64,000 bases of DNA from Corynebacterium jeddahense (GTDB lineage Bacteria; Actinomycetota; Actinomycetes; Mycobacteriales; Mycobacteriaceae): NCBI RefSeq assembly GCF_028609865.1, contig NZ_CP063194.1, forward strand, positions 372,001-436,000, written 5' to 3'. Made by a program: the position numbers and the translations under genes. Positions within the stretch are counted from its first letter, which is position 1. Every line of letters begins with the position of its first letter. Under the pieces are notes generated by a model. That model saw only the letters and a list, made by a program, of their open reading frames with translations, was not told the origin of the DNA and did not search any database. This document shows positions 16,202 through 35,776 of this stretch, in pieces.

Positions 16202-17647
16202 GGCTCTTCGTGTTTTAGAGTGCGTTGATCTTGGGTTGGAGGCCGCCGGAGTGAATCAGGCAACGCAAGATGTAGTGGTTGATGTTGCGGAACCCTAGCG
16301 CGATGCCGCGGAGGTGTTCGAGACGGCCGTTGATGGCTTCGACCGGCCCGTTGGAGGCGCCGATATCGAAGAACGCGAGGATGTCGGTGCGGCGTTTGTG
16401 CAGGCTTCGCCCGAGTTGGGTCAGCTCTTGAAGCCCGGCCTGACGAAGCCCGCGGAGCCGGTTGATCAGCCTGCGCATCTTCGTTTTCGCACGGCGCTTG
16501 TTGGGGTCTTCGTAGCAGTCGATGATCTCCTGGTACACCAGCCATGTCTCTTGCAGCACCGCGTAGTCATCGTCGTAGTTGAACAACACATCCAAGCGGT
16601 GCTGCTGCTCGCCATTAAGCAGACCGGTGCGGGTGAGCATGGTGCGACGGTTTTTATATAACGGGTCGTTGGTCCTGCCGCGCCTGCCGTAGGTTTCACG
16701 CTGCAGCCTCTGACGGCACGCGGTGACTTTGTCGCCGGCAAGACGCACCACGTGAAACGGGTCCATCACCCGGGTTGCGTGAGGAAGCGCCTCGTCAGCT
16801 GCGGTGGCGTAGCCCTGGAACCCATCCATGGTGACCACTTCCACCTCGTCGCGAAATGCTTTCGGCTGTTGGTTGATCCAGCATGTGAGCACGTTCGCGC
16901 TTCTTCCCGGAATGACATCGAGCAACCTCGCTGGTTGGCCTGTGTGGTGGCGGGTCATATCCACGATCACGGTGACGAACCCGCCGCCGGCCGCACGTCG
17001 ATCGTGGGCCCATTTGTGCTCATCAACCCCGATAATGCGCACCCCGGCCAAGTGGTCGGGGTCGGCGACGAGTTCCCTGGCCATGGACAATGCGAGATCG
17101 CATGTCAGCTGCCAGCTGATCCCGAGTGCTTTGGCGGTGGCGGCGATACTCATCCGGTCAATCGCTAAACGCTGCAAGATCCAGCGCACCACCCGATGCG
17201 TGACCTTCGAGCGATCGTCAGCACATGCCAGGCCAGCCCGGAAGATCTTCTGCGAACAGAGGCGGTTCACACACCGAAAGCGCGGCAGACGCACCCGTAA
17301 CCGGGTGGGAAACCCGACAACAGGAAGATCCACCAACTCCCGGCAGACGTGGTCACGCAGCACACCTGGCTGTCCACACGATGGGCAGGAGTTGATCGGG
17401 TCGAGCGCTTCACAGTCGATGACGGTGAGCGTGTCGTTGTGGGCGGCATTCGTAATCGCCAACCCAAGCTCCGCGGTGCGGCAAATGGTATCGGCGACAA
17501 TGTTGGAACTAGGCTGCATTACAGGGTCCTTGTTGAGTTCGGATTGGCTTGAACACCTAAATCCTTAACCCAGCAAGGACCCCCACATCTTGTGCCACAC
17601 CCAAGCACCCCGAAAAACGACCCACGCACTCCCAAACACGAAGAGCC
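16202..17647 (-). mobile_element. Complete ISL3-family insertion sequence (IS31831/ISCg1-like size)
   Basis: 1446 bp. Terminal inverted repeats are GGCTCTTCGTGTTT at 16202 and its complement at 17634-17647, diverging after 14 bases. It encodes one 434-residue transposase filling almost the whole element. The family assignment rests on the transposase and the 8-bp target duplication; the IS31831 comparison is from remembered length (about 1.45 kb) and host range and was not checked by alignment. Confidence 0.85.
16215..17519 (-). CDS. ISL3-family transposase
   Basis: 434 aa, apparently intact. N-terminal zinc-ribbon CPSCGQPGVLRDH with paired Cys further on (FRCVNRLCSQ), a helix-turn-helix region (SIAATAKALGISWQLTCDLA), then the DDE catalytic domain: IIGVDEHKWAHDR, VEVVTMDGFQGYATA and the C-terminal SNGPVEAINGRLEHLRG that supplies the Glu. 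It would mobilise this element and the related inverted-duplication structure. Its ATG at 17519 is followed upstream by the IS left end. Because the inverted partial copy repeats its C-terminal half, transcription reading from either side can give a long hairpin RNA. Confidence 0.93.
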   Translation of the reverse strand: MQPSSNIVADTICRTAELGLAITNAAHNDTLTVIDCEALDPINSCPSCGQPGVLRDHVCRELVDLPVVGFPTRLRVRLPRFRCVNRLCSQKIFRAGLACADDRSKVTHRVVRWILQRLAIDRMSIAATAKALGISWQLTCDLALSMARELVADPDHLAGVRIIGVDEHKWAHDRRAAGGGFVTVIVDMTRHHTGQPARLLDVIPGRSANVLTCWINQQPKAFRDEVEVVTMDGFQGYATAADEALPHATRVMDPFHVVRLAGDKVTACRQRLQRETYGRRGRTNDPLYKNRRTMLTRTGLLNGEQQHRLDVLFNYDDDYAVLQETWLVYQEIIDCYEDPNKRRAKTKMRRLINRLRGLRQAGLQELTQLGRSLHKRRTDILAFFDIGASNGPVEAINGRLEHLRGIALGFRNINHYILRCLIHSGGLQPKINAL

Positions 17648-18179
17648 GACAAAGTCACCGCGTGCCGTCAGAGGCTGCAGCGTGAAACCTACGGCAGGCG
17701 CGGCAGGACCAACGACCCGTTATATAAAAACCGTCGCACCATGCTCACCCGCACCGGTCTGCTTAATGGCGAGCAGCAGCACCGCTTGGATGTGTTGTTC
17801 AACTACGACGATGACTACGCGGTGCTGCAAGAGACATGGCTGGTGTACCAGGAGATCATCGACTGCTACGAAGACCCCAACAAGCGCCGTGCGAAAACGA
17901 AGATGCGCAGGCTGATCAACCGGCTCCGCGGGCTTCGTCAGGCCGGGCTTCAAGAGCTGACCCAACTCGGGCGAAGCCTGCACAAACGCCGCACCGACAT
18001 CCTCGCGTTCTTCGATATCGGCGCCTCCAACGGGCCGGTCGAAGCCATCAACGGCCGTCTCGAACACCTCCGCGGCATCGCGCTAGGGTTCCGCAACATC
18101 AACCACTACATCTTGCGTTGCCTGATTCACTCCGGCGGCCTCCAACCCAAGATCAACGCACTCTAAAACACGAAGAGCC
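17648..18179 (+). pseudogene. Inverted partial copy of the ISL3 element (C-terminal transposase fragment)
   Basis: Starts abruptly at GACAAAGTCACCGCG, which corresponds to position 16733 of the complete copy, and runs to the IS right end at 18179. It encodes the last ~143 transposase residues (from DKVTACRQRLQRETYGRRGR to GGLQPKINAL) without the zinc ribbon, helix-turn-helix and first catalytic Asp, so it cannot make an active enzyme. The junction with the complete copy shares only a few bases (CGACAAAG-like). Confidence 0.92.
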
Positions 18180-18187
18180 CGTAAACC
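18180..18187. repeat. 8-bp target-site duplication, right copy (CGTAAACC)
   Basis: Identical to 16194-16201; both are part of the original cas2 coding sequence (codons 12-14). Confidence 0.93.
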
Positions 18188-18220
18188 GGCGGGGCACGCG
18201 GTCACCACAAGGACAATCAC
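18180..18220 (-). pseudogene. cas2: cas2 (type I-E), 5' part
   Basis: GTG at 18218-18220 begins VIVLVVTACPAGLR, the first beta strand of Cas2e, then runs into the IS. The GTG overlaps the cas1 stop codon as GTGA, the usual tight coupling. As the DNA stands, translation would continue into the IS and stop after about 45 residues. See the 3' part at 15896-16201. Confidence 0.93.
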
Positions 18221-19155
18221 GTACGGACCTCGTCGTCTGCCCAGTTCACGCCTGAGGCGATGACTTCGAGCTCGCTCCACAGCATCAACTCGGCGTCGCT
18301 GAAGGGTTCGTCTTCAGGCACGCTCATGACAAATTTGAGGTCGCGGACCATGCGCTGCATGAGTCGCCTTTCGACAACCGCGTCTCGCATAATTCTTCGG
18401 ACAACAATCGCGGGCTGACCTTCATTACGAGCGACGGCATCGAAGGCAGCCGGTATAGCGATTTCTGCCTTGTACAGATCCGCGATGTCGTACACGAATG
18501 AGCGGTCAGTGCCGGTGTGAATGATCCCAAGCGCCGGAACGAAGCCCATCCCCGCAACAACGGCATGGGCTATGCCGTAGAGGGCAGCGCTCGCTGCGGT
18601 GAGTGCCTGGTTGATCGGTGAGGAGGAGTCAAAGTCATTCGGGTCGTAGCTCCTGCGGTCCCAGTACACTCCGGTGCGCGCAGCCTCGGCGGCGTACACC
18701 TTCTTCATACGAGCTCCTTCGCGGCCCCGAAGCTTGGCCATCGAGAGACCGGTGAGATCTTCGCCCGGAAAACGGAGATCGTACATCCGTTTTGCGCAGT
18801 CCAAACGCTTTCTCTGGTGGGAAACAATCTCAGCTTGAAGCTCAGCCATGCGCGAGGACTTAGCAGGTGGCCGGCCGCTGGCGTAATACCTAACACCACG
18901 CTCACCTACCCAAACCGTAGAAGTGCCAGCATCTCCAAGTAAAGCCATTGCCGCATACGTGATTCGGGTTCCAGGGCCAAGGAGGAGTACCGCCAGCTGA
19001 GTGGCTGGGACATGTGCCACGCCACGCTGATCAGTGATGGTGAGCGCGTTCCCGTCTCGATTCACCGTTGCGCGCTCAACGTAGAGGAAAGAAATTCGGT
19101 CTCCCATCTGCGCCAAAGCGTGCCGGGTGATCGGCAGCTCTTGGGGTGTTGCCAA
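18217..19155 (-). CDS. cas1: CRISPR-associated endonuclease Cas1 (type I-E)
   Basis: 312 aa. The integrase of spacer acquisition; works as dimers with Cas2. Metal-binding catalytic residues are present: Glu in LRGREGARMKKVYA (about 147), His in ALGIIHTG (about 211) and Asp in FVYDIADLYKAE (about 223). The N-terminal beta-sandwich domain (ITRHALAQMGDRISFLYVERATV) is typical of Cas1e. The start is an uncommon TTG at 19153-19155, one base after the cas6e stop, so translation is probably coupled. The gene is intact, but its partner cas2 is disrupted, so acquisition is predicted to be off. Confidence 0.95.
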   Translation of the reverse strand: MATPQELPITRHALAQMGDRISFLYVERATVNRDGNALTITDQRGVAHVPATQLAVLLLGPGTRITYAAMALLGDAGTSTVWVGERGVRYYASGRPPAKSSRMAELQAEIVSHQRKRLDCAKRMYDLRFPGEDLTGLSMAKLRGREGARMKKVYAAEAARTGVYWDRRSYDPNDFDSSSPINQALTAASAALYGIAHAVVAGMGFVPALGIIHTGTDRSFVYDIADLYKAEIAIPAAFDAVARNEGQPAIVVRRIMRDAVVERRLMQRMVRDLKFVMSVPEDEPFSDAELMLWSELEVIASGVNWADDEVRT

Positions 19156-21762: not shown

Positions 21763-22410
21763 CTAGGAGGAAGCGGCGGGGAGGTCAGTGGGTTCGTTGT
21801 CGGAGAGTTGCTCGTCCTGCTGGGACGGGCGGAGCATGCCGACCGCGTAGTCGCGGCCCCAGCGCAGGAGAACGCCATCGCGACGCGTGGGGTTTTGCAG
21901 GCTGCGCAAGTCGTGGGCAAACGCGCCGTAATCGAAAGCGAGTTTTTTGTTCCTCAGCAATGAAACCAAAGTGCGAAGGTGAAGGAGCCGCGACGTTTCG
22001 TCGCGTGCGGTTTGCATCGCGTCGAATCGGGGTTTGAGAGATGCCGAGTCACTGATGCTGTGCAGGCGGCCACAGGCTCGTGCAAATGAACGGTCCTCGG
22101 TGTGCGCCGGGGTGGTTGCGCTTTGCATGTGTGCGGCAAAGAGTGTGAGGGCGTAGTATGCCGCGGATTCGGACGGGGAAGGGGCGTCCCCACGCCCGAT
22201 CTCACCTTCGCTCAATGTAGGGGTGAGCACACTTAGCACCAGTTGAAGTGCGAGGGGATCAGTTCCGAATTCGCGCGCCGCACTTTTGCGCAGCTCTGCG
22301 AGGATTCGGCGCGCTTCCGTTCCTTCGATTGAGTCGGGTCGTTCCAAGTAACTGGTTTGCAGGCGGGCTGCGGTGTTGGCCACACTGAATCGCAGATTTG
22401 GACTGCTCAT
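21763..22410 (-). CDS. cse2: Cascade small subunit Cse2 (CasB)
   Basis: 215 aa, helical. Two copies stabilise the displaced DNA strand in the Cascade R-loop. Weakly conserved family; identified from position between cse1 and cas7, length and motifs such as AAYYALTLFAAHMQS, RFDAMQTARDETSRLLHLRTLVSLLRNKKLAFDYGAFAHDLRSL. ATG overlaps the cse1 stop as ATGA. Confidence 0.9.
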   Translation of the reverse strand: MSSPNLRFSVANTAARLQTSYLERPDSIEGTEARRILAELRKSAAREFGTDPLALQLVLSVLTPTLSEGEIGRGDAPSPSESAAYYALTLFAAHMQSATTPAHTEDRSFARACGRLHSISDSASLKPRFDAMQTARDETSRLLHLRTLVSLLRNKKLAFDYGAFAHDLRSLQNPTRRDGVLLRWGRDYAVGMLRPSQQDEQLSDNEPTDLPAASS

Positions 22411-24110
22411 GCTTGGTCTCCTTTCTGGCGCAATTCGCGCTGTTCTTTCTCGTGCTCCCGCAAAAGGGGGAGGTCTTTGCTGATTCGATACTGCAGACTG
22501 CGGTATAGGGACCCCGCGCTGACCACGCGCCCCTCGCCGTCCTCTCCGGCATCGACCACTCGCCCGACCAGCGCCTTTTGTCCCGCTCCGCGCACTTTCT
22601 CATCCGCAATGCGGAAGAGATGCTCGCGGATCCGGCGCTGCCAACCGATACCTTCTTCCTCAATTTCCTCCAGGTTGAGGTTCCGCAGCCAGTCGAGGAA
22701 GAGTGGTTCCAAGAGGGTGTACAGGCTGTCGGCTGCGTCAGCGTCAAAGACGTACTCGCCGCCTGCCGCAACCTCGAGTTGACCTGCGAACCAGCCGAGC
22801 GAGATGGCGGCATTCTTGGTCGCTTCAGCGGCGTCTCGGACGTATTGGCGGTGTACTCGGGACAGGCGGTCATCCTGCAGCAGGGAAAGAGGCAATCCAA
22901 TGTTTCCCGTCACCACAGTGCCTATCGACGAACTCTGTGGCCCGTATCCCATCGACACGATGTGGACATCCGCGACTTCGTTGGAGCGCTGGTGCCGGGC
23001 GATCGAGGCAAAATTGATCAAGTTACTTGGCCGCTGAGGTGCTCGGTCTGTATCTGAAAAACCGGGATCCGACTGAGCAGCAATCAGTGCGTCCAGTGAC
23101 CGCCACATTGTGCGCTCCGCATCGTACGGTTTCGGATAGAAGGCCAACTGTCCCTTCTTGGATTGGTTCTTGCTGAAGCGGTATGGGGTCATCGGATCCC
23201 CAAACGCGTTCTTCCCCGCATCGGGGATGCGGTCACCATTGCTCACTAGCACGGCGACAACCTGGTCTCCCTCCGGGAACAGGCGGATCCTCCTACACTG
23301 CCAAGTTGCCAAATCGGCTGCACCTTTAGGCGCCGGCGCTGGAGGATCGGCGAGTTTGCCTGCGCGATCGTTGCGCTGAGCTGCTGAATCAGGTTCGCGT
23401 TCCCAGGCCGGCAGATCGTCAGCGGCGCTTGGAGAAAGGATGTCCTCAGTGCTGTTCAGTAGCAGCGTCTCCAGCAGGGTGCGGCCTTGGATGACGGTGC
23501 CGCCGGTCATCCCGGCCCAGCCTGTGCCGATCGGGTAACCTTTTCCACCCTTCACACGAGGATCGCCGATTGCGCCGGATTTGATACCGGAGTAGTCATA
23601 GGCTTGGGTGTGAATGAGCCAGCGCGCAGCTTCGGCAAACGTCAAACTTGAGCGGCCTTCGTGCGTGCGCATCGTGAAATAGTCTTGCTCCGCATCAGGC
23701 AAGATGCGTGAGACGGGTTGCCGCGTGGACTTGGTCGTGTCCAGAGCCGCCACCTGCATGAAGGGAGCAGTGGTGTCGAAGAGATTGAATCGATCCCGGT
23801 GCGTGTTGAGGTACTCCAGGACGGCGTCATCGCGGCCGTCGTCGAGAAGCTGCTTGCGTGTGTTGATGAACCATTCTTCCCACCGCCGAGCTTTTGCGGG
23901 CTCGCCGAGGTGGGCACGCCAGAAAATGGCCAGCAGTACGCGGAGTACCGCATAGTCCTGGGTGGGGGAGTCGCCGAGGATCCGAATGGGGGATGATGTG
24001 CCGTCGAAAACTTGGCGGATACTCAATGTTTCAATGCCGTCAGTGGTCTCGCAGACGATCCAAGGTTGCTCTAGGAGATCGAACGACGGCTGATTGTCTG
24101 ACGTTGTCAC
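22407..24110 (-). CDS. cse1: Cascade large subunit Cse1 (Cas8e, CasA)
   Basis: 567 aa from the GTG at 24110. Reads the PAM and recruits Cas3. N-terminal signature: FDLLEQPWIVCETTDGIETLSIRQVFDG; then AVLRVLLAIFWRAH, the loop with FNLFDTTAPFMQVAAL, and the C-terminal four-helix bundle. Follows cas3 after 57 bases with its own TTTCTCC/GGAG-type site. No damage seen. Confidence 0.94.
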   Translation of the reverse strand: MTTSDNQPSFDLLEQPWIVCETTDGIETLSIRQVFDGTSSPIRILGDSPTQDYAVLRVLLAIFWRAHLGEPAKARRWEEWFINTRKQLLDDGRDDAVLEYLNTHRDRFNLFDTTAPFMQVAALDTTKSTRQPVSRILPDAEQDYFTMRTHEGRSSLTFAEAARWLIHTQAYDYSGIKSGAIGDPRVKGGKGYPIGTGWAGMTGGTVIQGRTLLETLLLNSTEDILSPSAADDLPAWEREPDSAAQRNDRAGKLADPPAPAPKGAADLATWQCRRIRLFPEGDQVVAVLVSNGDRIPDAGKNAFGDPMTPYRFSKNQSKKGQLAFYPKPYDAERTMWRSLDALIAAQSDPGFSDTDRAPQRPSNLINFASIARHQRSNEVADVHIVSMGYGPQSSSIGTVVTGNIGLPLSLLQDDRLSRVHRQYVRDAAEATKNAAISLGWFAGQLEVAAGGEYVFDADAADSLYTLLEPLFLDWLRNLNLEEIEEEGIGWQRRIREHLFRIADEKVRGAGQKALVGRVVDAGEDGEGRVVSAGSLYRSLQYRISKDLPLLREHEKEQRELRQKGDQA

Positions 24111-24167: not shown

Positions 24168-26972
24168 TTAGCTGACATTGTCCCCTTGCCCGTCGCTAAG
24201 AATTTCGATTCCGAGTTCCGAGGAGTAACGAACCCTGAACCGGCCTAGCTCTGCTTCGCCGTCCTCGTTGAGTGGGAGCGCGAGCTGACCTTTGAGGAGG
24301 TAGTGCTTGTTCCAAGCCGTTGGCGTTAGCTGCTCGAGAGACCCGACCACGTCGTTGAAATCATGGTCGTACCTGGTCATTCGCGCAGGAAGGCGCACTG
24401 TGCTCGAAGCGAGGTGAAGCGCCTGGCGGTAGTTCAGTTCGGGGTTTCCGGTAATCACCCAATCGGTTCCAAGAGGTGCATACTCCTCTTCGCTGCCGAG
24501 GATGGGGATAACCTCCACGGCCGGTTCCGCATCGCGCACTTGTGCTGCACCGATTTCTTCATCACCCAGGCGAACGGCGGCTCGCTGAAGATCCCCAAAG
24601 AGATCACTCAACCTCGAGCACTCATTCGGTGATTTGATTCGGAAGCTCTTAGAGCGGCTGTGCGCCGCTTCTTGGCGCGCCTGATTCAGAACTTCTGCTT
24701 TCTCCCATTCTTCGACCCATTCGGCCGGCACCTCTTGCTCAGGCGCGTAGACCGCTCGGACAAGCGGGGCGACATCGTCGGGGCGCTTGAACGTATCCGG
24801 TAGGTGGAGAATGGTTGAAAGCAGGACCTTGGCCCCATAGATCGCTTCGGCGCCGGAATTCAGTACCGGGTGCGGGGTGAGGGAATCGATGCTTCGGACA
24901 AACACTCGCGGCTCCCGCAGGGCCGCCGGCCTGTCCGTCAACGGGCGGTCGTGGCGGTGCAGGCGCCCGATGCGCTGAATCAGCAGATCCATCGGGGCAA
25001 TGTCGGTGATGAGAACATCAGCATCGATATCCAGGCTCTGCTCTGCGACCTGGGTGGCAACCACAATCTTGAGGTGCGGCCTGCTTTCGCCCCGATGTGC
25101 CCCGGGGCCGAGCTCGGTGCGTAAGCGGTCCTCTTTCTCTGAACGCTCCCACGCCATGAATCCTGCGTGGTGGAGTTCAACCTCGTCGGGGAAGGACTGC
25201 AGGAGAGCCGTGTAGGCCTCTTGTGCTCGGGCGATGGTGTTGCAGATGATGAGGGCCACGCCGCCGTCGTTAAGCAAAGCTTCCATCTCACGCAGGAGGA
25301 CTTCATCAGAATCTTCAATGACCTCGAGCGTGGCCTCTAGGTTCGTGGGACTGGGCTCTGGCGCAATGCTGTGTTGACTCGACCCCGAGGCCACAGTGAT
25401 GAGTGGGTAGGAGTGGGAAGGGGTCGCGACTTCCTGTCCGGTGTACGCTTTTACCAGAGCGTTTCTGCGATCTGGGGGCAGTGTCGCTGACATCATTATG
25501 ACGGTCGCTCCGTAATGCGCCAGCCACTCGAGGGTGGTTTCGAGGTAGTCGGAGGTGTATGTGTCGTAGGCGTGCACCTCATCGAAGATGATGATTTTTC
25601 CAGCAAGCGCGACATGCCTCAGCATGGAATACCGCTGCCGCAGCGCCATCATGAGCACTTGGTCGACGGTGCCCACGACCACGTTTGAAAGCAGCCCCCG
25701 GCGGCGCCCGCTCATCCACGAGCTTGCCACCACATTGTCGCCGGTGGGGTAGTCCTCGCCAATACCCTTGAACCGCAGTCGTTGGTACGGCTGGGAGAGC
25801 TGGTTCTTCGAATGTGCGAGGTAAAGAGACGCCACAGCTTCCGCCTCGGTCGTGTTCTTCGTCCATGCGATCGTCCGCTCGAGCAACCCGTTAGCGGTGG
25901 CCATCGTCGGTGCTGCGAAATAAATGCCCTGTGCATCCGTGGCGTTCGCGATGACATGTGCCGCAGCGAGCGCGGCTTCCGTTTTTCCTACGCCTGTCTC
26001 GGCTTCGAGGATGATTAGTGTGGGTTCGGTGACCGTCTTCGCGGCCTCAACCATTGCAGCCTGCACACTCCGTGCGCGGTAGTGGTCGGGCCAATCGAAG
26101 GAGCTTTGATACAGCTTATCGACGTCTCCGTCGATCGCCCTCCCGCTCCAAGGCGCCGTCAGGTCTGTCGCTTGCATTCCCAGCTGGACGCGTTCTTCCT
26201 GGGTGCCCGTGACCACCATAGGAAATGCTTCTGGGTTGGACGCGATCCAGTCGGCGATGACGACGAGACCGGTAAGCAGTTGTATCGCCGCTGCATCGTT
26301 CAGGCTATTCGTTTTCAGAGTTTCAAGGGTGCTCTGGACGTCTATGGCTTCGGCCATAGTGTTCAGTAGCTCGCGGTGAACCTCCTGCCACTCGTTTGGG
26401 TAGGCCGACAAAATGGTTTCGATGCGGTCCCGATCCTCAACTGGTGAAGGTACGCCGTGGTGAGCATCGGCGACCGATGAAAGCAGCTCTGCAGTTGGGT
26501 AATCAAACCCCTGTTCCATGAGCCAATTCAGGATGAGAACTCCGGAGCAGATTCCGTGCGGCATCTTCGTCAGGGTCTTCTCCAGACCCCCTACGCGAAG
26601 TGGGAGACCCGCATCGGTCAGGTTGAATACCAGATGCTCAAAACCACCCTTTTGCTCGAGTTGGGTTTGGAACTTTAAGCAGGCCTTGCCGCAATCGTGC
26701 ACGCCTGCGAGCCATATGTAGAGGTCTCGAACTTGGTCGTCGCTGAGGCTTAGCCCCTCGGTTAGTCGACGCTTAATTGGTTCTGCGACCCACGTGTCAT
26801 AAACCACCGCCGCCACCCCGGCCGTGTCCATGAGGTGCTGGGGAAGGCTGAGGTTACCGGATTCGTCCCCTGATTTCGCCCACATGGCGCGAGTTTGCTT
26901 ACTGAATGGCGGGAAGTTGGTGGGCGTTCGAACAGAATGTTCGAACTGGGGGGTTTCGTGTCGACCCTCCAT
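24168..26972 (-). CDS. cas3: CRISPR-associated helicase/nuclease Cas3 (HD + helicase)
   Basis: 934 aa. Degrades DNA marked by Cascade. HD nuclease: WAKSGDESGNLSLPQHLMDTA (about 31-51), then GVHDCGKACLKFQ (about 94-106) with the metal-binding His-Asp, and later SVADAHHGVPS. SF2 helicase: Walker A EAETGVGKTEAALAA (about 316-330), DEVHAYDTYTSD, SATLPP, and QRIGRLHRHDRPL. The ATG at 26972 has AGGAG seven bases ahead and a promoter 50-78 bases upstream; an ATG at 26885 directly before WAKSG is possible. First gene of the cas operon; the operon is compact except for a 57-base gap after cas3. Confidence 0.95.
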   Translation of the reverse strand: MEGRHETPQFEHSVRTPTNFPPFSKQTRAMWAKSGDESGNLSLPQHLMDTAGVAAVVYDTWVAEPIKRRLTEGLSLSDDQVRDLYIWLAGVHDCGKACLKFQTQLEQKGGFEHLVFNLTDAGLPLRVGGLEKTLTKMPHGICSGVLILNWLMEQGFDYPTAELLSSVADAHHGVPSPVEDRDRIETILSAYPNEWQEVHRELLNTMAEAIDVQSTLETLKTNSLNDAAAIQLLTGLVVIADWIASNPEAFPMVVTGTQEERVQLGMQATDLTAPWSGRAIDGDVDKLYQSSFDWPDHYRARSVQAAMVEAAKTVTEPTLIILEAETGVGKTEAALAAAHVIANATDAQGIYFAAPTMATANGLLERTIAWTKNTTEAEAVASLYLAHSKNQLSQPYQRLRFKGIGEDYPTGDNVVASSWMSGRRRGLLSNVVVGTVDQVLMMALRQRYSMLRHVALAGKIIIFDEVHAYDTYTSDYLETTLEWLAHYGATVIMMSATLPPDRRNALVKAYTGQEVATPSHSYPLITVASGSSQHSIAPEPSPTNLEATLEVIEDSDEVLLREMEALLNDGGVALIICNTIARAQEAYTALLQSFPDEVELHHAGFMAWERSEKEDRLRTELGPGAHRGESRPHLKIVVATQVAEQSLDIDADVLITDIAPMDLLIQRIGRLHRHDRPLTDRPAALREPRVFVRSIDSLTPHPVLNSGAEAIYGAKVLLSTILHLPDTFKRPDDVAPLVRAVYAPEQEVPAEWVEEWEKAEVLNQARQEAAHSRSKSFRIKSPNECSRLSDLFGDLQRAAVRLGDEEIGAAQVRDAEPAVEVIPILGSEEEYAPLGTDWVITGNPELNYRQALHLASSTVRLPARMTRYDHDFNDVVGSLEQLTPTAWNKHYLLKGQLALPLNEDGEAELGRFRVRYSSELGIEILSDGQGDNVS
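26926..26946. repeat. 21-bp palindrome inside the cas3 5' end
   Basis: GTTCGAAC, five bases, GTTCGAAC, each half itself palindromic. It lies in codons 9-15 of cas3 (or in the leader if the later start is used). It resembles the actinobacterial LexA box TCGAAC-N4-GTTCGA but has five central bases instead of four. Confidence 0.6.
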
Positions 26973-27021: not shown

Positions 27022-27050
27022 AGGATAGCGTCCCTTGCGGGATGGGGCAA
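27022..27050 (-). promoter_or_regulatory. Predicted promoter of the cas operon
   Basis: On the minus strand: TTGCCC (27050-27045), 17 bases, TATCCT (27027-27022), giving a start near 27015 and a leader of about 43 bases to the cas3 ATG. The spacing is ideal; the boxes are moderately good. The site matched by the crRNA-like element (27057-27071) lies directly upstream, and a full 33-base R-loop from it would cover the -35 box. Confidence 0.6.
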
Positions 27051-27056
27051 CCCTAA

Positions 27057-27074
27057 ATCCCACAATAACGAGTT
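27057..27074 (-). promoter_or_regulatory. Protospacer-like site upstream of the cas promoter
   Basis: On the minus strand, AAC (27074-27072, PAM position) is followed by TCGTTATTGTGGGAT (27071-27057). This matches the pseudo-spacer of the neighbouring crRNA-like element at positions 1-5, 7-11 and 13-15, differing only at 6 and 12, then diverges. Such partial complementarity allows Cascade binding but usually not Cas3 cutting, so the expected outcome is repression of cas transcription. Confidence 0.72.
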
Positions 27075-27119
27075 TATTTTTCGTGGACTGGGGTAAGTTG
27101 CCGTGCTGCAATATGTTTA

Positions 27120-27196
27120 GTTGATCCCCGCTAGTCGGGGATGAGCCCTCGTTCTTGTGCGATCGGCTCACATCCCCGCGTCAGCGGGGTAGCATC
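27120..27196 (+). ncRNA. crRNA-like element: two degenerate CRISPR repeats around a 20-nt pseudo-spacer (CreR-like)
   Basis: Pseudo-repeat 1 (27120-27147) keeps the stem ATCCCCG/CGGGGAT and the 3' handle ATGAGCC of the array repeat. The 29th base is C and is followed by TCGTTCTTGTGCGATCGGCT (27149-27168). Pseudo-repeat 2 (27169-27196) keeps CCCCGCGT-AGCGGGG with one change in the loop. Cas6e should be able to cut both hairpins, releasing a mini-crRNA with a normal 5' handle. The pseudo-spacer matches a site beside the cas promoter 49 bases away (see 27057-27074). Known analogues are Cascade-guiding regulatory RNAs (CreA, CreR). No toxin-sized gene lies between the elements, so autoregulation rather than a CreTA toxin pair is the better reading. 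Transcription from here is inferred. Confidence 0.72.
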
Positions 27197-27259
27197 GGTG
27201 ACGCTCAAAAGTTGTCCGAAAAAGGTATGTGTGGCCTCTCTTCCCCCAGCTCGGGAAGG
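27197..27259 (+). promoter_or_regulatory. CRISPR array leader, proximal part
   Basis: 63 bases between pseudo-repeat 2 and the first perfect repeat (27260). The leader side is set by the repeat orientation (hairpin followed by ATGAGCC handle on the plus strand, as in other I-E arrays) and by degenerate repeats accumulating at the opposite end. No clear promoter boxes are visible in these 63 bases; transcription may start further upstream, in the AT-rich part 27060-27118. Confidence 0.55.
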
Positions 27260-30200
27260 GTGCTCCCCGCGTGAGCGGGGATGAGCCCCCCACCAAACAC
27301 GCCCCTGACCGCACACCGGCGTGCTCCCCGCGTGAGCGGGGATGAGCCGGTGGCGCGCAAACAGCTGTCCGGGCAGGTCGCGTGCTCCCCGCGTGAGCGG
27401 GGATGAGCCCTTTGAGCTAGACGCGCAACCCCTTAGCGCGATAGTGCTCCCCGCGTGAGCGGGGATGAGCCCTCCACCTGGTCAAAAGTGAGGTCGTGGA
27501 TCTCGTGCTCCCCGCGTGAGCGGGGATGAGCCCATGCCCGGCGGCGAACCCTCGATGGACGGGCTGTGCTCCCCGCGTGAGCGGGGATGAGCCCACTTTG
27601 AGTTTGCGCTTCTCCTTATCCCCGACGTGCTCCCCGCGTGAGCGGGGATGAGCCCCGCCGGTGAGAATGTCCACCTGCTCCACATCCGTGCTCCCCGCGT
27701 GAGCGGGGATGAGCCCGCGGCGACAATCAGCGTCGAGCCGAGCGCAGCCGTGCTCCCCGCGTGAGCGGGGATGAGCCCGCGCTGTGGGAGTGTCCGTCGG
27801 CGGCGGGGTCGTGCTCCCCGCGTGAGCGGGGATGAGCCCCGAGGTGACGGGGTGTTACGAAAATGTGCCCCGTGCTCCCCGCGTGAGCGGGGATGAGCCC
27901 CTGGTAGTCGGCGGTCTTGTGGTGGACTTCGGGTGCTCCCCGCGTGAGCGGGGATGAGCCCTCGAGGTCGTGGATCTCTGGTTCACCAAACGGGTGCTCC
28001 CCGCGTGAGCGGGGATGAGCCGTCCATTCGGCTGGGGCCGTCATCGGTCAGGCTGTGCTCCCCGCGTGAGCGGGGATGAGCCGCCGTCGTCGAGGGTTTC
28101 GCGGGAGATGATCGCGTGCTCCCCGCGTGAGCGGGGATGAGCCTCGTCGGTTTGAGCGGCAGGAGCATGAGCTTGAGTGCTCCCCGCGTGAGCGGGGATG
28201 AGCCCAAGGACTGGCTGCTCGACCTCGAAACCAAAAAGTGCTCCCCGCGTGAGCGGGGATGAGCCCGTGTTACCTGCCTCGAGCGCGGCACCACCCACGT
28301 GCTCCCCGCGTGAGCGGGGATGAGCCGTCGTCAACCCGGAGTGGGCCAGCGTGCCCGACGTGCTCCCCGCGTGAGCGGGGATGAGCCCCCGTAAATGGCT
28401 TGGATGACGAAAGACCTCGCGTGCTCCCCGCGTGAGCGGGGATGAGCCCCGGCGGCGCGACACCCCAAGAAATCGCCAAAGGTGCTCCCCGCGTGAGCGG
28501 GGATGAGCCCTCCACCAGATCAACCAGCACATCGAATACCGAGTGCTCCCCGCGTGAGCGGGGATGAGCCCTACCGAGAGGCTCACCATGAGCATTGATT
28601 ATGGTGCTCCCCGCGTGAGCGGGGATGAGCCTGTCCGCAGTGCTTGCAAAGTTCAACACCGGCCGTGCTCCCCGCGTGAGCGGGGATGAGCCCGCCATCG
28701 TCGACTTTCTGCAGAAACCCTTGTGGTGCTCCCCGCGTGAGCGGGGATGAGCCGCGAATCATCGACATGGTTGAAGCCGTGCTCGGGTGCTCCCCGCGTG
28801 AGCGGGGATGAGCCATCCAGGTGATGCAGCGCATGGGCGACGCCAAAGTGCTCCCCGCGTGAGCGGGGATGAGCCCGCGCAGTCTGTCGCCCCGGTGAAG
28901 GAGGAGGCGTGCTCCCCGCGTGAGCGGGGATGAGCCCAACATGCCCACCTGCCCAACTGCTGCTGGGGGCGTGCTCCCCGCGTGAGCGGGGATGAGCCCG
29001 CATGGTCGCCAAGCGCGACCCGACCGCTGCAGTGCTCCCCGCGTGAGCGGGGATGAGCCCAAGGACTGGCTGCTCGACCTCGAAACCAAAAAGTGCTCCC
29101 CGCGTGAGCGGGGATGAGCCCTTGGCCTGGAACGTTTCAGCCTGGTCGAAGTCGTGCTCCCCGCGTGAGCGGGGATGAGCCCGCGCACCGGACGGCAAAG
29201 TGACCGCCCCGCCAGGTGCTCCCCGTGTGAGCGGGGATGAGCCCTCCACCACCCCGCCAACCTTGCGGGCCTGCCAGTGCTCCCCGCGTGAGCGGGGATG
29301 AGCCCCGTCTCCTCACGCGACTCACGGACATACCCCTGTGCTCCCCGCGTGAGCGGGGATGAGCCCGCTATGTCGGCGTCGCAGGCCAGCATGGCGATGT
29401 GCTCCCCGCGTCAGCGGGGATGAGCCCGACGACTCCCGCGACGACGCTTCGGCCTTCTCGTGCTCCCCGCGTGAGCGGGGATGAGCCCCGGCAGTAGCTG
29501 CTGCCCCGCCGACAACAACTGTGCTCCCCGCGTGAGCGGGGATGAGCCCGCCTCGACACGCTGCTCGTGGACACCCTCGGCGTGCTCCCCGCGTGAGCGG
29601 GGATGAGCCCCCCGAGCGGGTCGCGGGTGGCTACATTGTCGGGGTGCTCCCCGCGTGAGCGGGGATGAGCCGTACAACGAGCAGGCGCTGGCGGCCATGG
29701 ATGCGTGCTCCCCGCGTGAGCGGGGATGAGCCCTGAACTTCGACGACCCGGACGAAGTAGACGGCGTGCTCCCCGCGTGAGCGGGGATGAGCCGAGAGGT
29801 TTGACAGTGAGAGAGTTCACGTTCACGTGCTCCCCGCGTGAGCGGGGATGAGCCCACACTAGCTGCCCGGACTAGCGGACAGACAAAGTGCTCCCCGCGT
29901 GAGCGGGGATGAGCCCGCGCTATTGAAATCTGCGAGAAGAAACAGCGCGTGCTCCCCGCGTGAGCGGGGATGAGCCCTGGCGTGCCACCAACAACGGATT
30001 AGCCCTCGCGTGCTCCCCGCGTGAGCGGGGATGAGCCGTCTCAGGACGCGTCGAAAGATGCGACGGATGCAGTGCTCCCCGCGTGAGCGGGGATGAGCCT
30101 CGCAGTACCAGCCGCAGCCAAACCCACAGCCCAGTGCTCCCCGCGTGAGCGGGGATGAGCCGTTGTGGCCGAGGTGAAGAAGATCGTGGAGTTTGTGCTC

Positions 30201-33200
30201 CCCGCGTGAGCGGGGATGAGCCCATCATGGCCTACACCCGTGGTCTGATCACCGCGTGCTCCCCGCGTGAGCGGGGATGAGCCGTTCCCTCGAGGGCGTA
30301 CCCCGAGCAAACCAAGGTGCTCCCCGCGTGAGCGGGGATGAGCCCGCCGCCCGTGACGCGGCGGACAACCGAATGCAGTGCTCCCCGCGTGAGCGGGGAT
30401 GAGCCCCCTCATTCCCCGTGGCGAACTTCCGGCCTTCCGTGCTCCCCGCGTGAGCGGGGATGAGCCGCCACCCTGGAAAACGTCTACACCTGGGACAACG
30501 TGCTCCCCGCGTGAGCGGGGATGAGCCGACTGCGCAGGGCTACGGCACCGGCACCATCCGGTGCTCCCCGCGTGAGCGGGGATGAGCCAGCGCAACAAGA
30601 CCGTGAAGTCTGACTTCATTGGTGCTCCCCGCGTGAGCGGGGATGAGCCCCCCTGACCAGCTCGACCAGGCCACCATCGACCGTGCTCCCCGCGTGAGCG
30701 GGGATGAGCCCCCACTCTGACGCGGGAGGAGATCGCCCATGAGGTGCTCCCCGCGTGAGCGGGGATGAGCCGACCCCGCGCACCACACCTGGTGGCAAGC
30801 AGCGCGTGCTCCCCGCGTGAGCGGGGATGAGCCCGGTGTAGACCGGCAGGGTGACGGGGCGGGCGGGTGCTCCCCGCGTGAGCGGGGATGAGCCCAAAGC
30901 CCTGCTGGATTCTGGCGTGAAGGTTTCGTGCTCCCCGCGTGAGCGGGGATGAGCCCAGTCGTCACAATTCGCCTCCTTTTGGGCATAAGTGCTCCCCGCG
31001 TGAGCGGGGATGAGCCCCAGCCGAACGCGATACGCGGCCCGGAACCCAAGTGCTCCCCGCGTGAGCGGGGATGAGCCCTTTTGCGCGTTGAACAACCTGT
31101 CAAACCCGACGTGCTCCCCGCGTGAGCGGGGATGAGCCCCAACCCTGACGCGGGAGGAGATCGCCCATGAAGTGCTCCCCGCGTGAGCGGGGATGAGCCC
31201 GACCAGGCCGGTCTGTAACCGGAAGCCGGGACGTGCTCCCCGCGTGAGCGGGGATGAGCCCGGGGTTGGACATTGCTCAAACCTCCTAGGTTGGTGCTCC
31301 CCGCGTGAGCGGGGATGAGCCCCCGGCGACACCATCTATGTAATCGAAACCGGAGTGCTCCCCGCGTGAGCGGGGATGAGCCGGACGGTGTCCTCACCCG
31401 CGCCGCCGCGAACGCGTGCTCCCCGCGTGAGCGGGGATGAGCCCAATCGCCTTCGCGGACGGCACGAACAATGCTCGTGCTCCCCGCGTGAGCGGGGATG
31501 AGCCCAGGGTGAAGAAGAAGGCCGGGGTGAACCCGGGGTGCTCCCCGCGTGAGCGGGGATGAGCCCATTACGGTTCCGCCACTCCTATCTCCCACTCAGT
31601 GCTCCCCGCGTGAGCGGGGATGAGCCCAAGAACCATTTAAACAAGAACCAAAGGAACGAGTGCTCCCCGCGTGAGCGGGGATGAGCCCTCATCGACGTCT
31701 CCATCATCAACCGCCAGGTCGTGCTCCCCGCGTGAGCGGGGATGAGCCTCCACATCTCCGGCCCGTGATTCGTGCGGGCGTGTGCTCCCCGCGTGAGCGG
31801 GGATGAGCCCAGCACCCTGCGGTGGCAGATGATCATGTCGTGGTGCTCCCCGCGTGAGCGGGGATGAGCCCACACCCAGGCCCTCGTCCACCAGCAGATC
31901 CACGTGCTCCCCGCGTGAGCGGGGATGAGCCTAGACAAGGCCTGAATACGCCGCAGGACTAGAGGTGCTCCCCGCGTGAGCGGGGATGAGCCTAGACAAG
32001 GCCTGAATACGCCGCAGGACTAGAGGTGCTCCCCGCGTGAGCGGGGATGAGCCCCCCCTGCAGCGACCCAGACATCTTCGCCGTCAGGTGCTCCCCGCGT
32101 GAGCGGGGATGAGCCCCAGCGGCCCCAAGAACCCGTCACCATGATTCTGTGCTCCCCGCGTGAGCGGGGATGAGCCCATGGTGGTGGTCTCTCTCTTTCG
32201 GGTGTCTGTGTGCTCCCCGCGTGAGCGGGGATGAGCCCTGCACTAGCTTCTGGTCGACAGCGTTGATCACGTGCTCCCCGCGTGAGCGGGGATGAGCCCG
32301 CATTGGCCGACCTTGAGCGCCCCCTCCCCGGGTGCTCCCCGCGTGAGCGGGGATGAGCCGTAATCACAGCCGGTTCCAGGTCAAGCGCTTCCGTGCTCCC
32401 CGCGTGAGCGGGGATGAGCCCCCGGTCAACGCGGCCGCACCAGTGCCCTTCACGTGCTCCCCGCGTGAGCGGGGATGAGCCCATGGCCGCCGACAAGCTC
32501 GAAGCGGCCCGTGTGTGCTCCCCGCGTGAGCGGGGATGAGCCCGACGCGCGACGACGGATGGAGTCCTTCGGCAGGTGCTCCCCGCGTGAGCGGGGATGA
32601 GCCGGTGGCGGGTTGGGCGGTGCCGCGGTCTGACGAGTGCTCCCCGCGTGAGCGGGGATGAGCCCCTACTCGAAACGCCGGCGCACACGACGGCCTGGTG
32701 CTCCCCGCGTGAGCGGGGATGAGCCCCGTTTCGAGTAGACACGTTCACGCAGGCCGTCGTGCTCCCCGCGTGAGCGGGGATGAGCCCATGTGCTGCGTCA
32801 ACCGCGGATCGCCGTCGTGAGTGCTCCCCGCGTGAGCGGGGATGAGCCCGCCACCAGCCCGCACCGGCCACGGTTGTGCACGTGCTCCCCGCGTGAGCGG
32901 GGATGAGCCCTCGTACGGTGGGGATACGGGCACCTACAAGAAGTGCTCCCCGCGTGAGCGGGGATGAGCCCAAGACCGCGATGGCCCACGTGCTGATCGT
33001 GAAGTGCTCCCCGCGTGAGCGGGGATGAGCCCCGGAACTCCCCGTTCGGCAGCAGTTCAAGGCCGTGCTCCCCGCGTGAGCGGGGATGAGCCGACGACCC
33101 ACGGTTCACAGGGACGGTTGGCATGGTGCTCCCCGCGTGAGCGGGGATGAGCCCTATCGACGGTGTCAAAGACAGAGGCGTACGCCGTGCTCCCCGCGTG

Positions 33201-35776
33201 AGCGGGGATGAGCCCCTCCCAGCCGAAAAGGAGACGACCAATGAGTGGTGCTCCCCGCGTGAGCGGGGATGAGCCGCGGCGAACCGCTTCTTCAACGCTC
33301 GCGGGGTCGTGCTCCCCGCGTGAGCGGGGATGAGCCCGACGGGAACGGCGGGTCGGTGAATTCGGGCATGTGCTCCCCGCGTGAGCGGGGATGAGCCCAC
33401 GCGCCCCAGCACCGGGGCGAAGGAATGGCGAGTGCTCCCGGCGTGAGCGGGGATGAGCCTGACAACGCCACGTTGCCCGACACAGACCCAAGGTGCTCCC
33501 CGCGTGAGCGGGGATGAGCCCCCTTGAGTCTCGGCATAGAACACCGAGCCGACGTGCTCCCCGCGTGAGCGGGGATGAGCCTCTTGTCCGGCGAGTCCGG
33601 GAACTGCTTATACAGTGCTCCCCGCGTGAGCGGGGATGAGCCCGGGGCGAGTTCTCCGCGCTGAATTCGGCCGGCGTGCTCCCCGCGTGAGCGGGGATGA
33701 GCCCCAACGCTGGCGTACCTGGGTGTGGCTGACCCGGTGCTCCCCGCGTGAGCGGGGATGAGCCCACCAGCCTGCTGCGCACCCAAGACGTTGTGCAGTG
33801 CTCCCCGCGTGAGCGGGGATGAGCCCCTGCACGTGCCCGGGCTATGCCAGACGAACCGGTGCTCCCCGCGTGAGCGGGGATGAGCCCAAACTCAAGGCTG
33901 GGCCGACCCGCACCTAGTGTGCTCCCCGCGTGAGCGGGGATGAGCCCGTCAGCGCCTGCTGCACCGCATTCCCCAGAGTGTGCTCCCCGCGTGAGCGGGG
34001 ATGAGCCCCCGCGTCCAGATCATGGGCGCGGGTCGGGATTGTGCTCCCCGCGTGAGCGGGGATGAGCCCCTCGACGTAGCCCATTGGCCTGAACCCGTCC
34101 GGTGCTCCCCGCGTGAGCGGGGATGAGCCGGGCGAGGGTGGCGACCCGTGCATGTTCTGCGAGTGCTCCCCGCGTGAGCGGGGATGAGCCTGACGGCGAC
34201 TACATCAGCTGTATCGGCCTGGGGTGCTCCCCGCGTGAGCGGGGATGAGCCCCCAGCAGAATTACTTCACGACGTGTTTTCGGAGTGCTCCCCGCGTGAG
34301 CGGGGATGAGCCGCCCGCGTCAAGGCGTACCGGCACGACATGTCCGGGCTCCCCGCGTGAGCGGGGATGAGCCGCCCGCGTCAAGGCGTACGGGCACGAC
34401 ATGTCCGTGCTCCCCGCGTGAGCGGGGATGAGCCCGCCGGCCAGGCAATCACCACCGCAGCCCACAAGTGCTCCCCGCGTGAGCGGGGATGAGCCCGCCG
34501 GCCAGGCAATCACCACCGCAGCCCACAAGTGCTCCCCGCGTGAGCGGGGATGAGCCCCCCGCGTACCCGCCGAGAAAGCACTCGCGGAAGTGCTCCCCGC
34601 GTGAGCGGGGATGAGCCCCTTCGACGGGGTGGGCGTGCGCCACTTGCTCCGTGCTCCCCGCGTGAGCGGGGATGAGCCCAACCCATCAACCGGACAACCC
34701 GCAGCGCGACGGTGCTCCCCGCGTGAGCGGGGATGAGCCCGCGTCGGCGGCACGGCGCGGATCACCCAGCACGTGCTCCCCGCGTGAGCGGGGATGAGCC
34801 CTCCAGCCCGTCAACATCGCCGACACGCGAAAGGTGCTCCCCGCGTGAGCGGGGATGAGCCCTACACCGCCGGCGAGGTCACCGGCAGCGTGGAGTGCTC
34901 CCCGCGTGAGCGGGGATGAGCCCTACACCGCCGGCGAGGTCACCGGCAGCGTGGAGTGCTCCCCGCGTGAGCGGGGATGAGCCCCCTCCCGCGGCCGTTG
35001 TGCAGGTCAAGCTCGGGTGCTCCCCGCGTGAGCGGGGATGAGCCCTCTCGCCCTGCACGGCACCACGCACCGACCACGTTCTCCCCGCGTGAGCGGGGAT
35101 GAGCGCCCGTCCGCGCCTTGTTGCGCGGCGATACCGGCGTGCTCCCCGCGTGAGCGGGGATGAGCCGAAAAGTGAAGTGACGCATGGAACGTGGGAAAGG
35201 TGCTCCCCGCGTGAGCGGGGATGAGCCTCGGTGCGCGCGGCCGCGTTGCGGCGTGACGACGTGCTCCCCGCGTGAGCGGGGATGAGCCCTCGAAGTGGTC
35301 ACGGATGTTCGTGCCGTAGGTGTGCTCCCCGCGTGAGCGGGGATGAGCCGTCGAAGCATCGACCGGGCCAGGCGGCCCGGAGGTGCTCCCCGCGTGAGCG
35401 GGGATGAGCCCTGCAAACTCAAAACCCGACCGCCGAAGGCGGTGTGCTCCCCGCGTGAGCGGGGATGAGCCGAAAAGTGAAGTGACGCATGGAACGTGGG
35501 AAAGGTGCTCCCCGCGTGAGCGGGGATGAGCCGGGACTTGGTCGGCCAAATCCCCCTATTCGCAGGTGCTCCCCGCGTGAGCGGGGATGAGCCGGGCTCT
35601 TGGCACATCGCCCCGTCCCACACCTCGTGCTCCCCGCGTGAGCAGGGATGAGCCGAATGCGTGGCGTGGCAAGCGTCGCTTGAGATGGTTCTCCCCGCGT
35701 GAGCGGGGATGAGCCCTGGACGGTATAGAAGAGGTCAAACTTGGGTAGGTGCTCCCAGCGTGAGCGGGGGGTAGGT
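27260..35776 (+). CRISPR. Type I-E CRISPR array, about 140 repeats
   Basis: A 28-bp repeat (starts GTGCTCCCCGCG, ends GCGGGGATGAGCC) alternates with spacers of mostly 33, sometimes 34 bases; the period is 61-62. From the first repeat (27260) to the last recognisable one (35749) the spacing allows about 140 repeats and 139 spacers. Nearly all repeats are identical. Variants: loop T-to-C changes near 29219 and 29399, 33433 (CCGG), a start lacking TG near 34346, and degenerate copies at 35089, 35627 (AGCAGGG), 35688 (GTTCTCC) and 35749 (truncated), marking the old end. The base after the repeat is mostly C. Some spacers recur (see findings). Reading frames spelling SSPLTRGA or IPAHAGST are repeats translated by chance. 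Confidence 0.98.

What the first reader, a model, noticed from the sequence alone, without database searches (positions are those of the whole stretch)
27057..27196. A crRNA-like RNA that appears to target the system's own cas promoter
Two degenerate CRISPR repeats (27120-27147 and 27169-27196) flank a 20-nt pseudo-spacer. Its first 15 bases, TCGTTCTTGTGCGAT, match TCGTTATTGTGGGAT on the minus strand at 27071-27057 except at positions 6 and 12, exactly the bases that type I-E Cascade flips out and does not read. The site follows AAC, and C is also the commonest base after the array repeats, where in type I-E the last repeat base comes from the PAM. It lies six bases upstream of a TTGCCC-17-TATCCT promoter for cas3, so an R-loop would cover the -35 box. 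Pseudo-repeat 1 keeps the Cas6e stem and ATGAGCC handle. Short matches of this kind bind without cleavage in known CreA/CreR systems. I know of no description of this instance in Corynebacterium.
Basis: partly seen in the sequence, partly recalled or inferred. Interest (0 to 1): 0.95.

Follow-up and report, generated by a model that had tools for sequence, protein, structure and literature searches.

The report
crRNA-like brake on own cas genes
Beside its CRISPR array this Corynebacterium carries a worn, one-guide mini-CRISPR whose guide matches DNA just upstream of its own cas genes, and across dozens of Corynebacterium species guide and matching site have changed in step, so the immune system is predicted to use this RNA to hold down its own expression.

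Summary
A degenerate repeat-guide-repeat (27120-27196) carries a guide that matches the cas3-sense strand at 27071-27057 at 13 of 15 bases, failing only at 6 and 12, after AAC; the pattern occurs at only these two places in the 2.57-Mb genome. Comparative data make chance untenable. Of 94 Corynebacterium cas3-upstream regions, 52 hold a divergent handle-like element chosen without looking at targets; 47 of those 52 have a site of at least 10/13 read bases between it and cas3, against about 4% for shuffled or foreign guides. A relaxed scan of the other 47 regions adds 11 loci (0.1 expected). Guide and site co-vary (254 compensated versus 14 unanswered differences at read positions; 2 versus 35 at positions 6/12). 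Guide length falls into two classes only, canonical or about 12 nt shorter. This is the anatomy of CreR, the Cascade-guiding RNA that represses cas promoters, already reported for type I-E (review passage). I therefore call it a new, lineage-wide set of members of a known kind; the primary CreR paper was not held. Transcription, processing, binding and repression are untested here.

The parts
27120..27147 (+). pseudo-repeat 1 (psiR1): degenerate repeat keeping a CCCCG/CGGGG hairpin and the ATGAGCC 5' handle
   Evidence: handle core GGGGATGAGCC: 138 in the window, 137 of them in array repeats and this one
27148..27148 (+). base between repeat and guide (PAM-derived position of type I-E), C
27149..27168 (+). 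guide of the crRNA-like RNA (bases 1-15 match the cas3-upstream site); 12 nt shorter than the array's usual spacers
27169..27196 (+). pseudo-repeat 2 (psiR2): keeps the hairpin CCCCGC-GTCA-GCGGGG (27174-27189) but has lost the handle sequence
27057..27071 (-). target site matching guide bases 1-5, 7-11 and 13-15, on the cas3-sense strand
27072..27074 (-). AAC flank at the PAM position
   Evidence: AAC in 41 of 47 loci (window included)
27045..27050 (-). proposed -35 box TTGCCC of the cas3 promoter (inferred)
   Evidence: sequence; not reported by the consensus scan
27022..27027 (-). proposed -10 box TATCCT of the cas3 promoter (inferred)
   Evidence: sequence; TAnnnT hexamers are frequent 15-50 nt after the site start in relatives
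24168..26972 (-). cas3, first gene of the predicted controlled operon
   Evidence: TIGR01587, TIGR01596 above cut-off
22407..24110 (-). cas8e/cse1
   Evidence: TIGR02547
21763..22410 (-). cse2/cas11
   Evidence: TIGR02548
20577..21920 (-). cas7e (true start probably inside this ORF)
   Evidence: TIGR01869
19855..20577 (-). cas5e
   Evidence: TIGR01868
19157..19858 (-). cas6e, the predicted processing nuclease
   Evidence: TIGR01907
18217..19155 (-). cas1e
   Evidence: TIGR03638
27260..35715 (+). canonical type I-E array, 139 repeats, 138 spacers, 126 of them 33 nt between repeats

Best explanation
The element is a degenerate one-guide mini-CRISPR whose RNA is predicted to be processed like a crRNA, to load into the cell's own Cascade and to guide it to a site just upstream of cas3, where it likely represses the cas operon. 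Shown by sequence: handle and hairpins, the 13/15 match with free positions 6 and 12, the AAC flank, and co-variation of guide and site in other species. Inferred: transcription of 27120-27196; Cas6e cuts giving an 8-nt 5' handle and a 3' hairpin; binding through about 13 read base pairs; no Cas3 attack because pairing stops after about base 15; steric exclusion of RNA polymerase; and feedback, since plentiful canonical crRNAs (138 spacers) would compete for Cascade and lift the brake. It works like CreR.
For: Match and uniqueness. Target-blind test: 47 of 52 handle-like elements have a site of >=10/13 read bases; shuffled guides reach that in about 3.7%, foreign guides in about 4.2% (n=2354). 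All 47 sites stay the same when chosen on all 15 positions. In 37 distinct guides, mismatches at positions 1-5 are 0,0,1,0,2; position 6: 26; 7-11: 0,1,2,3,4; 12: 28; 13: 4; 14: 12; 15: 15; rising to 29 and 30 at 17 and 18. Flank of the 47: AAC 41, AAG 3, AAT 2, AAA 1 (used only to break ties); per guide cluster AAC 17, AAT 2, AAG 1 of 20. Co-variation 254 compensated to 14 unanswered. One search adds 11 loci of the 47 left, 0.1 expected; ten of them have Cas3 only 33-38% identical to the window's, and in five the site lies on the other strand within 45 nt of the Cas3 match start. Guide length is quantised. Positions 6, 12, 18 are flipped out in type I-E Cascade (PMC5965380, passages). [quoted passage not shown] CreR autorepression in types I-B, I-E, V-A (PMC13131331, passage).
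Against: No RNA, binding or expression data. The promoter is a weak consensus match, and the matched 15 bp end 6 bp short of its -35 box. Of 94 loci, 36 lack a guide-site pair at threshold (two of these, L090 and L094, show an 11/13 candidate in the looser); 5 of 52 handle elements had no site at >=10/13 (one, L101, gained one). The PAM could not be checked independently: in five of six phage stretches the best spacer matches were only 81-88% identical with flanks ACC, TCC, GAT, TGC, CAC, none AAC; the sixth had no match above 69%. Type I-E Cascade with spacers shortened by 12 bp still supports slowed Cas3 degradation (PMC7296934, passage), so shortness alone would not make the guide safe; a few loci pair out to base 17-18. 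At read positions 33 pairwise cases have a changed site with the same guide, and 28 show other changes. Two guides of close relatives (L003, L004) match the L005 region better (13) than their own (12).
Confidence: 0.87

Rival explanations
1. The element is a decaying end of the array and the match to the cas3-upstream DNA is chance.
For: Both flanking repeats are degenerate and lie next to the array leader.
Against: Co-varying guide-site pairs in 47 of 52 handle-bearing loci, 11 more of the 47 left, quantised guide length, one site in the whole genome.
Confidence: 0.01
2. It is a CreA antitoxin: the guide represses a small toxin RNA or gene (CreT) lying before cas3, making the cell addicted to Cascade.
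For: CreA has the same anatomy, including pairing of bases 1-5 and 7-11 and two degenerate repeats (PMC8501985, passages).
Against: In the window 49 nt separate the proposed -10 box from the cas3 ATG, with no other ATG, GTG or TTG (sequence printed), so there is no room for a toxin reading frame; in five divergent loci the site lies close to the cas3 start. Longer gaps in some relatives were not examined for a CreT.
Confidence: 0.04
3. Cascade bound at the site activates cas3, or mainly controls the divergent transcript of the RNA itself.
For: In the window the match sits upstream of the proposed -35 box and 48 nt before pseudo-repeat 1.
Against: Distance and strand of the site relative to cas3 vary widely (-54 to -314 from the Cas3 match start; opposite strand near the start in five divergent loci), which suits a roadblock better than a positioned activator.
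Confidence: 0.07
4. The guide is an ordinary spacer taken by accident from the cell's own DNA and neutralised by mutation.
For: Self-derived spacers occur (recalled knowledge).
Against: The guide is 12 nt short, its repeats are degenerate, its match stops at base 15, and guide and site change together over the genus.
Confidence: 0.01

Closest known systems
CreR, cas-regulating crRNA-like RNA (Liu et al. 2023, Cell Host Microbe; paper not held, known here from passages of PMC13131331, PMC12737573, PMC12948488)
   Same: Mini-CRISPR outside the array, partial complementarity to the own cas promoter, effector used as repressor; type I-E is named among the types.
   Different: I could not read which I-E species were examined. 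This set spans Corynebacterium with four candidates in other actinomycete genera, and its guides come in two length classes, canonical or about 12 nt shorter.
CreA of CreTA modules (PMC8501985, PMC9458426)
   Same: Two degenerate pseudo-repeats, short pairing that skips base 6, PAM next to the site (passages).
   Different: CreA represses a toxin RNA; here the site precedes cas3 and there is no room for a toxin frame in the window. Type I-B there, I-E here.
tracr-L autorepression of Cas9 (recalled, not looked up)
   Same: A natural short guide turns the effector into a repressor of its own promoter.
   Different: Type II, different RNA and effector.
Shortened-spacer repression in Haloarcula hispanica type I-B (PMC10989794)
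   Same: Spacers of 20-24 bp repress the target, and with 24 bp interference and priming disappear (passages).
   Different: Engineered, type I-B.

Membership tests
CreR | crRNA-like unit outside the array with degenerate repeats near cas | tested here: met
   27120-27196 between cas3 and the array leader
CreR | guide partly complementary to the own cas promoter region, next to a PAM-like flank | tested here: met
   13/15 after AAC; 47 of 52 handle-bearing loci in the genus
CreR | conserved 5' handle and 3' hairpin for Cas6 | tested here: met
   in the window, handle ATGAGCC and hairpin 27174-27189; in the 47 loci, psiR1 stem of >=4 bp in 34 and a perfect psiR2 hairpin in 46 (L085 lacks one)
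CreR | site overlaps a working cas promoter | tested here: inconclusive
   weak -35/-10 match, not reported by the scan; TAnnnT frequent 15-50 nt after the site start in relatives, but also at the site start
CreR | RNA made, processed and bound by Cascade | not testable with these tools
   needs small-RNA sequencing and pull-down
CreR | represses cas; relieved by crRNA competition or anti-CRISPR proteins | not testable with these tools
   needs reporter assays
CreTA (CreA) | controls a toxin (CreT) | tested here: not met
   no ATG, GTG or TTG between the proposed -10 box and the cas3 start in the window
type I-E CRISPR-Cas | cas8e/cse1, cse2, cas7e, cas5e, cas6e and cas3 | tested here: met

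The most novel reading that the evidence does not exclude
Actinomycete type I-E systems keep a dedicated autorepressor: a guide built in one of two lengths only, canonical or 12 nt shorter, so that the short form assembles a smaller Cascade with two Cas7 subunits fewer that binds the cas promoter as a repressor distinct from the immune complex; the genomes thereby record, base by base, how Cascade reads DNA (1-5, 7-11 and 13 constrained, 14-15 partly; 6 and 12 free).
Probability: 0.45. Interest if true: 0.82.

Novelty: new member of a known kind. Interest (0 to 1): 0.7.

Why it matters
A review of actinomycete CRISPR systems asks whether they have regulatory roles there (PMC12231136, passage). 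Here 58 of 94 Corynebacterium cas3 loci carry a predicted self-regulating guide, including many diverged pairs usable as natural mutants. Such pairs show, without any experiment, which guide bases evolution holds matched and which it leaves free, and they predict a natural short-guide Cascade repressor that can be tested directly. For anyone using native type I-E systems in corynebacteria, the brake would have to be removed or titrated to raise cas expression.

Tried and rejected
Plasmid collection with the cas3-array intergenic region: no match. Spacer-protospacer matches in phage records to fix the PAM: matches too diverged to decide. Consensus promoter scan: none for cas3 or the RNA, one terminator-like hit. 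Rfam at E <= 1: only Chlorobi-1 at 13.1 bits against a gathering score of 50, taken as chance. Phage mini-array guides (see noticed items) as mimics of the cas brake: no match of the read bases plus AA flank in 242 Corynebacterium genomes for either guide, and in the fetched cas3 regions at best 12/13 without an AA flank, inside cas3; rejected at this stringency. A self-match of one canonical spacer at 43645 is what chance would give (my estimate). Liu et al. 2023 and a paper on shortened spacers in E. coli Cascade were not held. Searches behind the statement that I saw no description of this element in Corynebacterium; some of their listings were capped, and they cover the open-licence library only. 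In PMC9944170 (type I-E in C. striatum) I saw only passages found with six terms, none about such an element; PMC10097628 holds none of the five terms tried.

Full report
WHAT IS THERE. The window holds a type I-E effector set on the minus strand (cas3, cse1, cse2, cas7e, cas5e, cas6e, cas1e; cas2 further on) and, on the plus strand, an array of 139 repeats and 138 spacers at 27260-35715. Between cas3 (start 26972) and the array lies the reported element. Pseudo-repeat 1 (27120-27147) keeps a hairpin and the ATGAGCC handle; after one base (27148, C) comes a 20-nt guide (27149-27168); pseudo-repeat 2 (27169-27196) keeps the hairpin CCCCGC-GTCA-GCGGGG but not the handle. Guide bases 1-15 match minus-strand 27071-27057 at 13 positions, the exceptions being 6 and 12; the site follows AAC. 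In the 2.57-Mb genome the 13-base pattern occurs only at guide and site. The handle core GGGGATGAGCC occurs 140 times in the genome, all on one strand; 138 are in the window, 137 in array repeats and one here; the two outside the window were not looked at. None of the 138 canonical spacers exceeds 11/15 in the same upstream region.

FIRST COMPARISON. A scan of named genomes gave nine Corynebacterium cas3 loci (C. tuscaniense, C. urinipleomorphum, C. senegalense, Candidatus C. gallistercoris and five unnamed species). Eight of the nine carry a pseudo-repeat with handle upstream of cas3; in all eight the guide matches a site on the cas3-sense strand at 12-13 of 15, after AAC (seven) or AAG (one); C. 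senegalense (L008) shows none. The five most distant guides (L006, L007, L009, L010, L011) each match their own site best in the cross table; among the close relatives, L003 and L004 guides match the L005 region slightly better (13) than their own (12).

GENUS-WIDE TEST. Cas3 has a homologue at E <= 1e-50 in 94 of 242 Corynebacterium genomes, the own one included. I fetched the upstream region of the other 93 and used the window as the 94th. To avoid choosing elements by their match, I first picked, in each region, the handle-like sequence ([AG]T[GA]A[GA]CC after at least three G in four bases) nearest to cas3, 60-480 bp upstream on the divergent strand: 52 of 94 regions have one. Then I looked for the best site between it and cas3, scoring 13 read positions (1-15 without 6 and 12). 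Scores: 13 in 11 loci, 12 in 19, 11 in 15, 10 in 2, 9 in 2, 8 in 2, 7 in 1. So 47 of 52 reach 10. Shuffled guides reach 10 in about 3.7% and foreign guides in about 4.2% of 2354 trials. The flank was used only to break ties, yet it is AAC in 41 of the 47, AAG in 3, AAT in 2, AAA in 1. Choosing sites on all 15 positions gives the same 47 sites.

A READ-OUT OF CASCADE. Over 37 distinct guides, mismatch counts are 0,0,1,0,2 at positions 1-5, 26 at 6, 0,1,2,3,4 at 7-11, 28 at 12, 4 at 13, 12 at 14, 15 at 15, then 21, 29 and 30 at 16-18. Three quarters mismatched is what unconstrained bases give, so 6 and 12 look free, and constraint fades at 14-16. Reduced to one locus for each of 20 guide clusters, 30 of 39 mismatches among positions 1-13 fall on 6 and 12 (mean 6.0 and maximum 16 in 100,000 simulations). 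Within clusters, guide differences at read positions (1-13 without 6 and 12) are answered by the matching change in the site in 254 pairwise cases against 14 in which the site stayed the same and 28 others, and in 33 cases the site differs with the same guide; at 6 and 12 the numbers are 2 answered, 35 with unchanged site, 34 other, 40 with the site alone changed. These pairwise cases share ancestry and are not independent. Bases 6, 12, 18, 24, 30 are those flipped out in the type I-E structure (PMC5965380, passages).

SECOND GROUP AND OTHER GENERA. Scanning the 47 remaining regions with a looser handle on either strand, an AA flank and >=11/13, found 11 more loci with 0.1 expected from shuffles. 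Ten of them have Cas3 only 33-38% identical to the window's; nine have handles ATGATCC or ATGTTCC and nine have the guide running with cas3; in five the site lies on the opposite strand within 45 nt of the Cas3 match start. Total: 58 of 94; two further regions (L090, L094) show 11/13 only in the looser. The other 34 had no pair at threshold; several have partial or split cas3 genes. Among 296 sampled genomes of the class, 46 (own included) have a Cas3 match; of 25 of the 29 fetched regions outside the genus (four dropped beforehand: L144, L164, L168, L169, all with shorter loci), 4 have a candidate pair against 0.095 expected. These four are leads, not established members.

LENGTH. The distance from the end of pseudo-repeat 1 to the pseudo-repeat 2 hairpin was measured by searching 10-60 nt downstream for a perfect G+C-rich stem. 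The 5' arm ended at 31-32 in 31 loci and at 43-44 in 18, with nothing between and one locus (L085) without a perfect stem, of 50 examined (the 47 plus L089, L095 and L101, added by hand). The array repeat gives 44. The ten further Corynebacterium loci give eight at 32 and two at 43-44, and the four outside the genus 44, 44, 33, 33. So guides are canonical or about 12 nt short. Type I-E Cascade holds one Cas7 per six bases of guide, so the short class predicts a complex with two Cas7 fewer; this is inference. In 21 of 47 loci the second hairpin is followed by a T-rich stretch (at least 5 T in 10) and may serve as terminator; the window's is not (three T in ten, sequence).

HOW IT LIKELY WORKS. 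Shown: the anatomy and co-variation above. Inferred: the RNA is made, cut by Cas6e, and loaded into Cascade; Cascade binds the site through about 13 read base pairs; pairing then stops, so the R-loop does not lock and Cas3 does not attack. [quoted passage not shown] In type I-B, spacers of 20-24 bp repress, and at 24 bp interference and priming are gone (PMC10989794, passages); in type I-E, spacers cut by 12 bp still allow slowed degradation (PMC7296934, passage), so the mismatched tail, not shortness alone, must protect. The bound complex would block RNA polymerase at cas3. In the window the match ends 6 bp before the proposed -35 box. In 37 loci TAnnnT hexamers number 54 in the seven 5-nt bins 15-50 nt after the site start, against 0-6 per bin in the others, except the two bins around the site start, which hold 9 each. 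The varied distance and strand of the site argue for a roadblock rather than a positioned activator. Because 138 canonical guides compete for the same Cascade, repression would report how much free Cascade exists.

WHAT IS KNOWN. CreR RNAs are reported to mediate autorepression in types I-B, I-E and V-A (one passage of PMC13131331; longer description in passages of PMC12737573; PMC12948488). The primary paper (Liu et al. 2023) is not held, so I cannot say which I-E organisms it covers. CreA, the toxin-controlling cousin, pairs through bases 1-5 and 7-11 and has two degenerate repeats (PMC8501985, passages), and repeat degeneration stabilises such units (PMC9458426, passages). A review of actinomycete CRISPR systems leaves regulatory roles as an open question (PMC12231136, passage). 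In the eight library searches named in Tried and rejected I saw no description of this element in Corynebacterium. I therefore file it as a new member of a known kind, with the two guide lengths as a possible variant feature.

LIMITS.

Noticed in passing
L017 600-750 (Corynebacterium phage SamW MH727560.1, about 22046-22200); also Stiles, Dina, StAB, Troy, Lederberg, Bran: Samwavirus phages of C. xerosis carry, between genes 23 and 24, an unannotated two-guide mini-CRISPR with the same I-E hairpin and ATGAGCC handle (ATGAGTC in one unit of Stiles), followed by a terminator-like hairpin; 12 Corynebacterium phage records (RefSeq duplicates included) hold at least 80% of it. Its guides have no match of the read bases plus AA flank in 242 Corynebacterium genomes. 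It could be an RNA anti-CRISPR or a weapon against rival phages.
   Followed up: partly
15980-18255: cas2 (PF09707 hit at 15980-16204, minus) is separated from cas1e by an ISL3-family transposase gene (16215-17519, minus) and a second, partial copy of the same transposase on the plus strand (17561-18166).
   Followed up: partly
27143-27169: In the window and four close relatives the bases after the guide (GGCTC or GGCTT) can pair with the handle (GAGCC), folding the guide into a hairpin; fold z-score -4.2 in the window. A possible control of loading, unexplained.
   Followed up: no
L003, L004, L005 upstream of cas3: Pseudo-repeat 1 is an almost perfect palindrome in these species (for example GGCTCATCCCCG-ATTA-CGGGGATGAGCC), unlike the array repeat.
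   Followed up: no
L095 (G107), site 313 nt upstream of the Cas3 match start: Guide TAGGT-C-ATTTC meets site TAGGT-ATTTC, as if the DNA base opposite flipped guide base 6 were absent; scored as a miss.
   Followed up: no
27209-27259 and leaders of relatives: A box like AAGTTGTCC (27209-27217) and a short inverted repeat just before the first array repeat are shared by the array leaders of the close relatives.
   Followed up: no
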